Below the pieces are notes generated by a model. The model was given only the letters and a program-made list of their open reading frames with translations. It did not search any database and was not told the DNA's origin. Below, one piece after another: positions 12,171-17,218 of a stretch of 56,111 nucleotides of DNA. The position numbers and the translations under genes are program-made. Within the stretch, counting starts at the first letter, position 1, and every line of letters starts with the position of its first letter. Source of the stretch: Bacillota bacterium (lineage in GTDB: Bacteria; Bacillota; Limnochordia; Limnochordales; DUMU01); contig DUMU01000038.1 in NCBI GenBank assembly GCA_012839805.1, positions 1 to 56,111 of the forward strand. Reading direction: 5' to 3'.

Positions 12171-12356
12171 GGTGTCATCCTCTTGCCTGCGCCGGTGATT
12201 GCTCGCCTGCGTCCCATTGTACGGAAAAGCCGCTGGTGGGATCAATCGGGCGGAGGAAAAAAGGAAGGGGTGACGTAGGATTATGACGAGATGTGGTCTG
12301 CGTCCACGATTTGGGGTAGAATGCACCGGGGCGGTAACAGGGAGGGAGGAGCGCAC

Positions 12357-13553
12357 GTGATCGACAGAGAGAAAAGCAAAGTCGCGGCCTTTGCCCGCCG
12401 GCTCGGCCGGGAAGCACCCGCTTTGGGCCGGAGGGAGGGTAGCGATCTGGAGAAACCCGATCCGGCCTCCGTCCGTTCCATCGTAGTTTGGATCCTGGCT
12501 CCTCTCGGCGACACGATATTCGCCTTGCCGGCGCTGGCCGCGCTGCGGGCTGCCTTTCCCCGGGCCGAGATCACCGGTGTGGCGTGGAACTCCAACCGCG
12601 ACCTCCTCGAGACGAGCCCGTTCCTGGATGACCTGATCGTTTGCGGTAGTTCGGCTGATCTCCCCCGGGCTCTGGCCGTCGTTCAGAGCCGGCCGGTGGA
12701 TCTGTCGATCGGCCTGAGCAACATTGGATCGTACGTGTGTGCCTTCCATACGGGCGTCCGGCGGGTGGGCTTTCACGCCGAGGGACTCCGGTGGCTATGG
12801 GATTACACGTTCTCGGAGAACCTGGAGGGGCATGCCATCGATTACTGCCTCTCCGTGGTCGAATCGCTGGGGGTGGACGTCAGGGAGGCCGACCGCCAGC
12901 CGCAGGTGGTGCTGACCCCGGGCGACCACGCGTGGGCGGAAAGCTGGTTGGCGAGGCAACGGTGGGAGCAACCACCGCCGGAGACGTCCTTGATTGCCGT
13001 TCACCCGGGGGGGAGTCATTTCTCCGCCAAACGCTGGCCACTTTTACGTTTCTCCGAACTCATTACGAGGCTTCACGCCGACCCCGCCCGCCAGGTGGTG
13101 ATCATCGGTGGGCGGGACGACCGCCGCCTGGGAGAGATCATATCGCGTCACGTGCGCCATCCGCGCCGTCCGTGGATCGCAGCCGGCGAGGCGCGGATCC
13201 GTCAGACCGCCGCGCTGCTCGAGCGCTGCGACGTGATGGTAGGAAACGACTCCGGCCCCCAGCATCTGGCCGCGGCGGTGGGGACCCCGGTGGTGGCCCT
13301 CTTCGGGCCGACTTCGCCCACCAACTTCCGGCCTTACGGGGATAGACACGAAGTGATCTGGAAGGGTGACCGGCTTGCTTGTAGCCCGTGTTTTCGGTTT
13401 TTGGGAGGACTTCAGCAGTACTGGCCCCGCCGGCTCCGTCCCGGCTGCCGGCTGGAATGCATGCGCTCGATCACGGTAGAGGACGTGCTGGGGGCTGTCG
13501 AACGAATTCTCGGCGCTCGGGTGACCGCGGGGGCCCACCATGAGCATTCCTGA
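12357..13553 (+). CDS. Glycosyltransferase family 9 (ADP-heptose:glycan heptosyltransferase type)
   Basis: GT9-family enzyme of about 398 aa with the GT-B fold of LPS heptosyltransferases (WaaF/RfaF type). Visible: APLGDTIFALPALAALRAAFP in the N-lobe acceptor region, AVHPGGS near the interdomain boundary, and NDSGPQHLAAAVGTPVVALFGPTSP, the ADP-heptose-binding signature, near 295-320. A long N-terminal extension (about 40 aa) precedes the fold. GTG at 12357 follows GGGAGGGAGGAG. The downstream hldE-type kinase and nucleotidyltransferase genes make an ADP-heptose donor likely; the acceptor is unknown. A TAGAAT -10-like element lies about 35 bp upstream without a clear -35. Confidence 0.88.
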   Translation: MIDREKSKVAAFARRLGREAPALGRREGSDLEKPDPASVRSIVVWILAPLGDTIFALPALAALRAAFPRAEITGVAWNSNRDLLETSPFLDDLIVCGSSADLPRALAVVQSRPVDLSIGLSNIGSYVCAFHTGVRRVGFHAEGLRWLWDYTFSENLEGHAIDYCLSVVESLGVDVREADRQPQVVLTPGDHAWAESWLARQRWEQPPPETSLIAVHPGGSHFSAKRWPLLRFSELITRLHADPARQVVIIGGRDDRRLGEIISRHVRHPRRPWIAAGEARIRQTAALLERCDVMVGNDSGPQHLAAAVGTPVVALFGPTSPTNFRPYGDRHEVIWKGDRLACSPCFRFLGGLQQYWPRRLRPGCRLECMRSITVEDVLGAVERILGARVTAGAHHEHS

Positions 13554-14685
13554 GACCCGGCAGTGGCGGCGGGGCATCTTCGCCTCGGTCGTCCTCGGCA
13601 TTTTCGCGCTGCTGGCCATCGTCTATGTCACGAGCGGTCGTGATCTCGCGAGCGTAGTCCGGAATGCCACCCTGCTATCGCTCGTCCTGGGGGCGGCCTT
13701 CATCGTGACGGCCTGGCTCATGCGGGCGGTCCGTTTTTGGCTGCTCCTGCGCCGGATCGGCCGGAGGGCGCGAATTTTCTCCCTGTTGCAGATTTACCTT
13801 GCCACCACCTTCCTTTCACACGTCACGCCGTTCACCACCGGGGGGTTGCCGCTCCAAGTCTATCTGCTTTCCAAGCGACACGGTCTTACGCTGGGAGAAG
13901 CCACGGCGGTCACCGGCCTCGACTCCCTGATCAACACCCTGGGGGTACTGGTACTCATCCCTCTCCTCGCGGTTTGGGGTTCGGCGCTCACCGCCCGCCC
14001 GGAGATCCGGGCCGGCCTACAGCTTCTTGGGGTACTGCTGGTGGGGGCGGCCGGCCTCGGCGCATACCTCTTGTTTTTCCGTCCCAGCTGGAACGGGGAG
14101 GCGTGGCTCCGGCGCCAGGCGGAACGGCTCCGCCCGGGAAGAACCCGGAATGCCGTCTTGAAGCTGGCCGGGGGGCTGGGAGAAGAGTGGCGCTCCTTCC
14201 GGCAGGCTCTCACGGTCTACGGCCGCTTATCCTTCGTGGACCTGGTACCGGTCGTAGTGGTCACCTTCCTTTACTGGGCCGCCTATTTCGGCGTGGCCCT
14301 CGGGGTCCTGTGGGGTATGGGGGTCTTTCCTGCCTGGCAGGCGGTGCTCACGAGCCAGATCGTTTTCAACGTGCTCCAGCCTCTCGCTCCCACTCCCGGC
14401 GGCAGCGGGGCGGCGGAGTGGGGGATGGCGGTGCTCTTCCGGCACCTCGTTCCCCGGGAGCAGCTGGCTACTTTTGTTGCGGTCTGGCGACTGTTTACGT
14501 TCTACAGCAGCCTTACCCTGGGAGGCCTGTCGGCGGCCCGCCTGCTCGCGCCTTACCCGGCGAGGGCCGGTGGAGGAGGGCAGCCCGAGCCCCTCGACGG
14601 GTACCGGCGACCGGTCGACGTTACGATCGAGGAGAGGACCGGGAAAGAGAGAACGGCGGAAGGAGTCGAAGTTCGACATGGGTGA
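13540..14685 (+). CDS. Flippase-like integral membrane protein (UPF0104/MprF N-domain family)
   Basis: 381-aa polytopic protein with about seven or eight hydrophobic segments. The family pattern FLSHVTPFTTGGLPLQVYLLSKRHGL near residues 90-110 and PLAPTPGGSGAAEWGM near 285-300 matches lysylphosphatidylglycerol synthase membrane-domain proteins, some of which translocate lipid-linked molecules. No aminoacyl-transferase domain is present. It overlaps the heptosyltransferase end by 14 nt and the heptose kinase start by 8 nt, so it belongs to the heptose operon and may move or modify a lipid-linked heptose glycan; this is inferred from context. Confidence 0.82.
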   Translation: MSIPETRQWRRGIFASVVLGIFALLAIVYVTSGRDLASVVRNATLLSLVLGAAFIVTAWLMRAVRFWLLLRRIGRRARIFSLLQIYLATTFLSHVTPFTTGGLPLQVYLLSKRHGLTLGEATAVTGLDSLINTLGVLVLIPLLAVWGSALTARPEIRAGLQLLGVLLVGAAGLGAYLLFFRPSWNGEAWLRRQAERLRPGRTRNAVLKLAGGLGEEWRSFRQALTVYGRLSFVDLVPVVVVTFLYWAAYFGVALGVLWGMGVFPAWQAVLTSQIVFNVLQPLAPTPGGSGAAEWGMAVLFRHLVPREQLATFVAVWRLFTFYSSLTLGGLSAARLLAPYPARAGGGGQPEPLDGYRRPVDVTIEERTGKERTAEGVEVRHG

Positions 14686-15826
14686 ATGGTGGGAGGGATT
14701 GTTGACCCCGTCCGGACGTTTCGTGCCCGGCTCGTTTCGGCGCCTGATTCAACAGTTAGAGAACCGGACGGTCCTGGTCATCGGGGACGTGGTGGCCGAT
14801 CGTTACCTGGTCGCCCATCCGGAGCGAATCAGCCGGGAAGCACCGGTACTCATACTCCGCCAGGAAGACGAGTATGTGGTGCCGGGGGGGGCCGGAAACA
14901 CCGCGCATAATCTGGCGGCTTTGGGCGCCAGGCCTATACTGGTCAGCTGCATCGGGGAGGATGCCGCCGGGGAAGCCCTGGCGAGATCGCTGGAGGACTG
15001 CGGGGTATCCACGGAAACGCTGGTAAGGATAAGCGATAGGCCGACCTTCACGAAGACCAGGGTGCTGGCGGGAGACCGCCAGGCGGTGCGCCAGCAGGTC
15101 GTGCGGATCGACCATGGAGTGAGTCACCCGGTCGATGAGGCCGCCGCCCGCCGGTTGCGGGAATTCTTCCTGGAGGCTTTGCCCCGGTGTGAGGCGGTGG
15201 TCTTCTCCGACTACGGGCTGGGCGTCCTGGGTGATGATCTCATCCGGGAGGGGCTCGAGAAGGTCCGGAGGGCAAAAGTTCCCAGCGTGGCTGACTCCCG
15301 TTACCGCCTGCTGGCATACGTGGGGGTGGGGTGTGCCACTCCCAACCAGGTGGAATCGGAACAGGCTCTGGGCCGGGTCTTTCAAACCGAGGCCGAGGTG
15401 GAGGCGGGAGGTTTTGCACTGCTGGAACGATTGGGATCAGAAGCCCTCATCATGACCCGAGGGGCGTTGGGCATGGACCTTTTCCGGGCGGGGGAGCGAG
15501 TTCACATCCCCGCCGTCAACCCGGTCGACGTCTTCGACGTGACCGGGGCCGGCGATACGGTCACCGCCACGCTGGCTTTAGCGCTGGCCGCAGGAGCCGA
15601 GTGGGTGACGGCCGCCTCCCTTGCTAACCTGGCGGCAGGTCTGGTGGTCCGGAAGATGGGGACCCGAACGGTTACCCGTGGGGAGTTGCTCGGTTTTCTC
15701 GACCTTTGGGTGCGGGAAGCAGAAGCGAACGCGACGGCTCATCCTGAGGCCGGGAACTCGACCGGGTCGGCCGCACCACTTTTGGGCGGCGAGCCGGCCG
15801 GCAAGAGGAAGGAAATCGCGGGATGA
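14678..15826 (+). CDS. hldE1: D-glycero-beta-D-manno-heptose-7-phosphate kinase
   Basis: PfkB-family sugar kinase equivalent to the N-terminal domain of HldE (RfaE domain I), making heptose 1,7-bisphosphate. The core begins LVIGDVVADRYLV; PGGAGNTAHNLAALGA is the sugar-binding glycine motif, and DVTGAGDTVTATLALA near residues 287-302 is the anion-hole/catalytic motif with its Asp. The 382-aa protein has about 60 extra residues at the ends, including an Ala/Glu-rich tail. ATG at 14678 has AAGGAG 12 nt upstream and no better in-frame start. A 4-nt overlap couples it to the nucleotidyltransferase gene, so the two HldE activities are encoded separately here. Confidence 0.92.
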   Translation: MGEWWEGLLTPSGRFVPGSFRRLIQQLENRTVLVIGDVVADRYLVAHPERISREAPVLILRQEDEYVVPGGAGNTAHNLAALGARPILVSCIGEDAAGEALARSLEDCGVSTETLVRISDRPTFTKTRVLAGDRQAVRQQVVRIDHGVSHPVDEAAARRLREFFLEALPRCEAVVFSDYGLGVLGDDLIREGLEKVRRAKVPSVADSRYRLLAYVGVGCATPNQVESEQALGRVFQTEAEVEAGGFALLERLGSEALIMTRGALGMDLFRAGERVHIPAVNPVDVFDVTGAGDTVTATLALALAAGAEWVTAASLANLAAGLVVRKMGTRTVTRGELLGFLDLWVREAEANATAHPEAGNSTGSAAPLLGGEPAGKRKEIAG

Positions 15827-16350
15827 AAACCACTCGGATGTGGGAGGATCTCGAATCCCGGGTCATCCCCGCACAGGCGGCAGCCGAGGAGGCGAAGGCC
15901 TGGAGACGCGCCGGCGAGATCGTGGCTTTTACCAATGGCTGTTTCGACCTGCTCCACGTGGGCCATCTCCTTCCCTTCCTGTGGGCCAGGCGGCTCGCCG
16001 ATCACTTGATTGTGGGCCTGAACGACGACCGGTCGGTCCGGAACCTGAAAGGCCCGACCCGGCCGATCCTGCCGGAGAGGGACCGGGCGCTCATGTTGGC
16101 CGCGTTACGCATGGTGGACCGGGTGGTGCTCTTTTCCGAGCCGACTGCAGATCGGCTGCTTTGGACCCTCAAGCCCCATTTCTACGTCAAAGGCGGCGAC
16201 TACCGCCTGGCGACGCTCCCGGAAAAGGAGACGGTACTGGCCACGGGGGTGCGGGTAATCTTTGTGCCGCTCGTACCCGGGCACTCGACGAGCGGGATCA
16301 TTGCCCGGATCGGCGACGGCCGCCGGGAGGACCGAGCTGCCACGCGGTAG
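15823..16350 (+). CDS. hldE2: D-glycero-beta-D-manno-heptose 1-phosphate adenylyltransferase
   Basis: Cytidylyltransferase-like enzyme equivalent to the C-terminal domain of HldE (RfaE domain II), forming ADP-heptose. 175 aa, usual for the stand-alone form. TNGCFDLLHVGH with the HxGH nucleotide motif (His45, His48) is intact, and the downstream KGGDY and STSGIIARI motifs match. ATG at 15823 overlaps the kinase stop by 4 nt. GmhA, GmhB and the HldD epimerase are not in the window, so the pathway is incomplete here. Its stop abuts the convergent zinc-finger gene with 1 bp between. Confidence 0.93.
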   Translation: MKTTRMWEDLESRVIPAQAAAEEAKAWRRAGEIVAFTNGCFDLLHVGHLLPFLWARRLADHLIVGLNDDRSVRNLKGPTRPILPERDRALMLAALRMVDRVVLFSEPTADRLLWTLKPHFYVKGGDYRLATLPEKETVLATGVRVIFVPLVPGHSTSGIIARIGDGRREDRAATR

Positions 16351-16351
16351 G

Positions 16352-17218
16352 CTACCGCTGGCCCGTAAACGGGAACATGAAAGGTGTTGCGGGTTCAATA
16401 GTGAAACCCGGAGGCGGTGGCGGGTCCTTTACCGTTGCCTGCCAGATCGTCATCAACAAGGCCCAGGCCAGGTCGGGGTGGCGACTCCGGGATGACAGAA
16501 CGAAGACCATGGGCCAGTTGGGGGCACGACGAACTCCGTAAACGTGATCCCCGAAGTGGAAAGCCAGCTCGGCCAGATCCGTACGTCCCTGCCGGGCGAG
16601 CTCTTGTATCCGTTCATCCAGGGGCATCAGCGCTTTGGCGTCGACGTAGGCCTGGATGAAGCTAGGAGGCAGGGCGAACACGTCAACCGGCTCCTGGGTG
16701 CCCACCATTATGGTCAGTTTCTGGTAGTAAATGGCATTAGGGATCGCCACCACGTCCACTTGCACGCCGGGATGCTTCTTCTTGAACTCGGCTGCCAGGG
16801 TCTCGTAGCGCTTCCCCTCCCACAGGGTGATAGGTACGGCCAGGGTGAGGCGGGGAGGGCTGCTCGCAGGGGGCGAACCAAAGGTGCGTGAGAGGAGGAA
16901 TCCGATAAGAAGAAGCACGAGGAGAATCGAGGCAGAAAGCAAGCCCTTTTGGACCCGGCTAAGACGCTGCCAGAAAGAGGAAGGGACGGCGGCGGTCTCC
17001 GGGGCAGGCCGGGGTGGCAGGCGAACGGCCTCGGCCACCTGCGGGCAGCCAGGGCGCGCGCAGCCGCCCTTCTCCTGCCAGCAAGAGACATGGTGGGGCG
17101 AGCGACAGCGCGGGCAGATGACCGCCTGCTCGCCGGGCTGAAGGGGCCGGCCGCAAAAGATACACTTTTGACCGGCCAGGTGGCTGTCGGTGACAAGCTC
17201 GATTTTCTCCTGCGCCAT
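16352..17218 (-). CDS. RING-like zinc finger / transmembrane / mini solute-binding fusion protein
   Basis: Unusual 288-aa architecture. Residues 19-58 form a RING-like zinc finger: CIFC (19-22), CPRC (35-38), then HH (42-43), Cys46, Cys53 and Cys58, the cross-brace spacing of prokaryotic RING-type domains. A Pro-rich linker and one membrane helix (about 92-110) follow, then about 170 residues resembling one lobe of a type 1 extracellular solute-binding protein (LAAEFKKKHPGVQVDVVAIPN, then HPDLAWALLMTIW). Normal binding proteins are about 400 aa, so the second lobe is largely missing. Predicted topology puts the zinc finger in the cytoplasm and the binding lobe outside. ATG at 17218 is in a GGGAGCAGACGCCC context. 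Function unknown; a membrane sensor or scaffold is speculation. Confidence 0.75.
   Translation of the reverse strand: MAQEKIELVTDSHLAGQKCIFCGRPLQPGEQAVICPRCRSPHHVSCWQEKGGCARPGCPQVAEAVRLPPRPAPETAAVPSSFWQRLSRVQKGLLSASILLVLLLIGFLLSRTFGSPPASSPPRLTLAVPITLWEGKRYETLAAEFKKKHPGVQVDVVAIPNAIYYQKLTIMVGTQEPVDVFALPPSFIQAYVDAKALMPLDERIQELARQGRTDLAELAFHFGDHVYGVRRAPNWPMVFVLSSRSRHPDLAWALLMTIWQATVKDPPPPPGFTIEPATPFMFPFTGQR

What the first reader, a model, noticed from the sequence alone, without database searches (positions are those of the whole stretch)
16352..17218. RING-like zinc finger joined through one membrane helix to a one-lobe solute-binding domain
The gene encodes a CIFC/CPRC/HH/C/C/C cross-brace finger, a Pro-rich linker, a single TM helix and about 170 residues resembling one lobe of a type 1 binding protein. 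I know of no standard family with this order. The layout suggests an extracytoplasmic sensor coupled to a cytoplasmic zinc domain, or a membrane scaffold.
Basis: partly seen in the sequence, partly recalled or inferred. Interest (0 to 1): 0.7.

Follow-up and report, generated by a model that had tools for sequence, protein, structure and literature searches.

The report
RING finger, membrane helix, half sugar-binder
A little-studied group of two-membraned Bacillota carries a conserved membrane protein that joins a predicted inner zinc RING finger to exactly one half of a sugar-binding protein predicted to lie outside the membrane; the layout is real, and its job is still inferred.

Summary
On the minus strand (17218 to 16352) the window encodes 288 aa: an eight-ligand RING-type zinc finger (Prok-RING_1), a Pro-rich linker, one membrane helix, and lobe 1 of a cluster-1 sugar solute-binding protein (SBP) with lobe 2 cut out. 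The joint is not an artefact: 56 of 73 genomes of the class Limnochordia carry it in one open frame, all zinc ligands are invariant in 36 sequences, and dN/dS is about 0.1. AlphaFold gives a confident RING and a confident single lobe (Z 17; 2.3 A over 142 residues to one SBP). In other Bacillota the same one-lobe domain occurs without the RING, as a lipoprotein, in an envelope operon (csaB, tarA-like, transketolase, [lobe], S41 protease; with ftsEX and a PcsB-like hydrolase in one genus). This supports an outside location for the lobe. No E2-like enzyme was found in Limnochordia, so ubiquitin ligation is unlikely. Best reading: a bitopic envelope adaptor or sensor, laid out like TcaA (inside zinc finger, one helix, outside domain), whose outer lobe docks a partner or glycan without Venus-flytrap closure. 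The architecture is near certain; the mechanism is inferred (about 0.45).

The parts
16352..17218 (-). whole gene, 288 aa
17228..17234 (-). likely ribosome-binding site GGGGGAG, 9 nt before the ATG
   Evidence: sequence
17042..17173 (-). RING-type zinc finger, aa 16-59; ligands C19 C22 C35 C38 H43 C46 C53 C58
   Evidence: Prok-RING_1 E 4.8e-12; ligands invariant in 36 sequences; RING folds in PDB
16958..17041 (-). Pro-rich linker, aa 60-87, low confidence in the model
16883..16957 (-). single membrane helix, aa 88-112
   Evidence: hydrophobic stretch and predicted helix
16619..16855 (-). first block of SBP lobe 1, aa 122-200
16508..16618 (-). variable loop and stitch where lobe 2 is missing, aa 201-237; P233 invariant, Y227 nearly so
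16433..16507 (-). return strand and helix of SBP lobe 1, aa 238-262
16355..16432 (-). C-terminal tail, aa 263-288, partly unstructured

Best explanation
A bitopic membrane adaptor or sensor of the cell envelope. Shown by sequence and prediction: an N-terminal RING-type zinc module, one membrane helix, and a single extracytoplasmic-type SBP lobe whose partner lobe has been removed in one piece. Inferred: the RING lies in the cytoplasm and the lobe outside. With only one lobe it cannot trap a solute by closing, so it most likely works as a fixed docking surface for an envelope partner (a protein or a glycan polymer), while the RING, not acting as a ubiquitin ligase, docks a cytosolic partner. 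In layout it works like S. aureus TcaA (inner zinc finger, one helix, outer domain).
For: Conserved in 56 of 73 Limnochordia genomes under purifying selection. Lobe fold: the listed Foldseek and VIA hits of the whole model are sugar-type SBPs, Z about 16-17, 142 residues at 2.3 A to 6jb0. 11 of 12 full-length SBPs align in two collinear blocks with about 160-200 residues skipped between them, i.e. lobe 2. The same lobe exists as a lipoprotein with lipobox cysteine in eight genomes of other Bacillota, in a conserved envelope operon, which places the lobe outside. The RING recurs on other membrane proteins: RING-helix only; RING-zinc ribbon-multipass; RING-helix-TPR and RING-helix-other in Wallbacteria and Riflebacteria. 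TcaA layout: PMC10328498.
Against: No partner is known. In Limnochordia the gene mostly stands alone among housekeeping neighbours on the other strand, so context gives no partner there. Positive charges flanking the helix do not decide topology (3.0 before, 2.8 after). The envelope operon belongs to the RING-less form only, and the tree cannot tell whether both one-lobe forms share one origin. No full-length FtsX match was found in Limnochordia.
Confidence: 0.45

Rival explanations
1. Accessory or brake of sugar ABC importers: the lone lobe 1 docks on importer permeases (the normal partner of SBP lobes) and competes with full SBPs or tethers the importer, while the RING recruits a cytosolic factor.
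For: The lobe derives from sugar SBPs. Genomes with the gene hold more SBPs than those without (median 25 versus 8 matches, p 4e-5; by family 11 versus 5, p 0.01).
Against: SBP-rich G004 lacks the gene, and SBP-poor G061, G054 and G060 have it. No importer gene was recognised next to it. The lipoprotein form lies in an envelope operon, not an importer operon.
Confidence: 0.25
2. Membrane chaperone or protease adaptor: the outer lobe holds clients or feeds a membrane or S41-type protease, the RING being structural.
For: An S41 C-terminal protease lies near the lipoprotein form in both families. 16 of 36 homologs end in G-(x)-F, a hydrophobic tail.
Against: The lipoproteins lack that tail, and no protease was recognised beside the gene in Limnochordia.
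Confidence: 0.15
3. Membrane-bound E3-like ligase of a bacterial ubiquitin-like system, analogous to eukaryotic PA-TM-RING ligases.
For: Closest solved RINGs include RMR1 and RNF13. Prokaryotic RINGs were described in such systems (recalled from Burroughs 2011, not readable here).
Against: No E2 (UQ_con) in 73 Limnochordia genomes, while the same search finds one in G158, outside the class. The only Prok-JAB match in the window genome is below cut-off; by its length and position it is probably RadC (inference).
Confidence: 0.05
4. A degenerate SBP relic kept by accident.
For: Loss of lobe 2 alone would look like decay.
Against: Purifying selection, 56 genomes, compact confident fold.
Confidence: 0.02

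Closest known systems
Prok-RING_1 (PF14446)
   Same: The finger passes the family cut-off; eight ligands invariant
   Different: Here fused to a helix and an SBP lobe; no E2 found in the class
Cluster-1 sugar solute-binding proteins (SBP_bac_1, PF01547)
   Same: Lobe 1 fold and sequence
   Different: Lobe 2 and the C-terminal part missing; no flytrap possible; anchored by a helix, not a lipid; not in a recognised importer operon
TcaA of Staphylococcus aureus
   Same: Zinc finger inside, one membrane helix, large outer domain (PMC10328498)
   Different: No TcaA family among the Pfam matches at E up to 1; eight-ligand RING; outer part is an SBP lobe
Eukaryotic PA-TM-RING proteins (RNF13, RMR1)
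   Same: Outer recognition domain, one helix, inner RING; among the nearest RING structures (PMC4021871)
   Different: Order reversed, PA domain absent, no E2 partner found

Membership tests
Prok-RING_1 (PF14446) | profile score above the curated cut-off | tested here: met
   46.1 bits against 29.1
Prok-RING_1 (PF14446) | eight zinc ligands and RING-type fold | tested here: met
   ligands invariant in 36; predicted fold nearest to solved RINGs, Foldseek E 5e-3, VIA Z up to 6.5, a modest score for a small domain; zinc itself not tested
Cluster-1 solute-binding protein | profile score above the curated cut-off | tested here: met
   43.2 bits against 26, but positions 10-77 of 307 only
Cluster-1 solute-binding protein | two lobes with a ligand cleft between them | tested here: not met
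   lobe 2 absent in sequence and model
TcaA | inner zinc finger, one helix, outer domain | tested here: inconclusive
   order and helix predicted; sidedness inferred from the lipoprotein forms
TcaA | TcaA-type outer domains | tested here: not met
   the outer part matches SBP families above cut-off and SBP structures
PA-TM-RING | PA domain, helix, RING in that order | tested here: not met
   RING comes first; the outer part is an SBP lobe
RING E3 ligase | works with an E2 enzyme | tested here: inconclusive
   no UQ_con in 73 genomes, found in G158 by the same search; divergent prokaryotic E2 families not searched

The most novel reading that the evidence does not exclude
The one-lobe SBP is a separate, previously unnamed envelope recognition module of Bacillota, used in two anchored forms: a lipoprotein in a wall and S-layer operon (with FtsEX and PcsB in one genus), and a RING-helix transmembrane receptor in Limnochordia, part of a wider bacterial set of RING-helix-variable outer domain receptors.
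Probability: 0.35. Interest if true: 0.75.

Novelty: new variant of a known kind. Interest (0 to 1): 0.52.

Why it matters
Solute-binding proteins are textbook two-lobed traps. A conserved form reduced cleanly to one lobe, anchored either by lipid or by a RING-bearing helix, suggests the lobe was reused for something other than solute capture. It also gives a bacterial RING a conserved transmembrane setting where no E2 was found, so what RINGs do outside ubiquitin systems becomes testable.

Tried and rejected
Gene context in Limnochordia: housekeeping genes in the annotated examples. Rfam and tRNA scans of the window: nothing. Promoter and terminator scan: nothing. Plasmids: no match. Positive-inside rule: undecided. 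Tree of one-lobe forms against full SBPs: 106 columns, unresolved; AU test rejects neither grouping. FtsX in Limnochordia: only partial, weak matches. Assembly artefact and pseudogene: rejected. Literature: no paper found on this architecture; the 2011 prokaryotic RING survey is not held. VIA and Foldseek on the whole model listed SBP chains only, so the RING was modelled alone. TcaA families and PA domain were not listed among the matches seen.

Full report
What is there. The gene runs on the minus strand from 17218 to 16352 and encodes 288 residues. Pfam finds Prok-RING_1 at aa 16-54 (E 4.8e-12) and SBP_bac_1 at aa 138-204 (E 6.7e-11), both above cut-off; the SBP match covers only the first quarter of the profile. 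No NCBIfam model matches. It is the only Prok-RING_1 gene found in its genome.

Is it real. The window belongs to a bacterium of the class Limnochordia, judged by its nearest named relatives; these are diderm Bacillota (PMC11456536). Counting rows, 56 of 73 class genomes carry finger, helix and lobe in one open frame, and one genome of another class, G238, does too. Eight ligands are invariant in 36 sequences. dN/dS is 0.08-0.11 in five pairs.

One lobe. AlphaFold on the 36-row alignment gives mean pLDDT 84.8, about 95 in the lobe and about 90 in the finger. VIA-align matches model residues 120-288 to sugar SBPs at Z up to 17.3, with 2.3 A over 142 residues to 6jb0. With a profile of the family, 11 of 12 full-length SBPs from these genomes match in two collinear blocks separated by about 160-200 residues in the SBP and about 10 in the profile (the second blocks score weakly one by one, their shared position is the evidence). 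So lobe 2 is missing as a unit, and the stitch carries the invariant P233.

The finger alone. Modelled apart (pLDDT 84.2), it resembles solved RINGs best: RMR1 and RNF13 in Foldseek (E 5e-3); RNF38, ZNRF1 and RNF13 in VIA (Z 6.0-6.5). These are modest scores for a 64-residue domain.

Where it recurs. In six genomes of one genus and two of another family (L143-L149, L231) the lobe occurs without a RING, as a lipoprotein of about 170-190 residues. The neighbours are csaB, a WecG/TarA-type glycosyltransferase, split transketolase, then the lobe; an S41 protease follows, with ftsE, ftsX and a PcsB-like M23 protein in between in the first genus and a polysaccharide deacetylase after it in the second family. 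Seven of those eight genomes have no Prok-RING_1 match; G158 has one elsewhere, beside a JAB-like frame read by eye. The lipobox places the lobe outside the membrane, by established knowledge of lipoproteins.

How it works. A lone lobe cannot close on a solute. The best-supported reading is a bitopic adaptor: lobe outside as a docking surface, RING inside as a protein-binding module. The location and the docking are inferred. The TcaA layout is the nearest described parallel (PMC10328498). A ligase role is unlikely: no UQ_con in 73 genomes, with a positive control in G158, though divergent E2 families were not searched.

What is not settled. Topology by charge, partner, ligand, and whether both one-lobe forms share an origin.

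Noticed in passing
L143-L149, L231: RING-less one-lobe SBP lipoproteins in a conserved csaB, tarA-like, transketolase, S41 protease operon; ftsEX and a PcsB-like M23 gene in one genus only.
   Followed up: partly
L104-L111, L113, L118-L120: Second Prok-RING protein: RING, mostly a zinc ribbon, then several hydrophobic segments (read by eye).
   Followed up: partly
L114-L117: Short RING proteins of 117-154 residues that end just after one membrane helix, in genomes that also hold the long form.
   Followed up: no
L062, L064, L066, L063: RING-helix-TPR-like proteins in Wallbacteria and a RING-helix-other protein in Riflebacteria (read by eye): same layout, different outer domain.
   Followed up: partly
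C-terminal ends of the rows of alignment A2: 16 of 36 homologs end in G-(x)-F, often after Pro and hydrophobic residues; unexplained.
   Followed up: no
window 12291-16350: LPS heptose genes: heptosyltransferase, flippase-like protein, split hldE kinase and adenylyltransferase.
   Followed up: no
L234: G158 has a short RING frame beside a JAB-like frame, and an E2-like match on the same contig about 30 kb away.
   Followed up: partly
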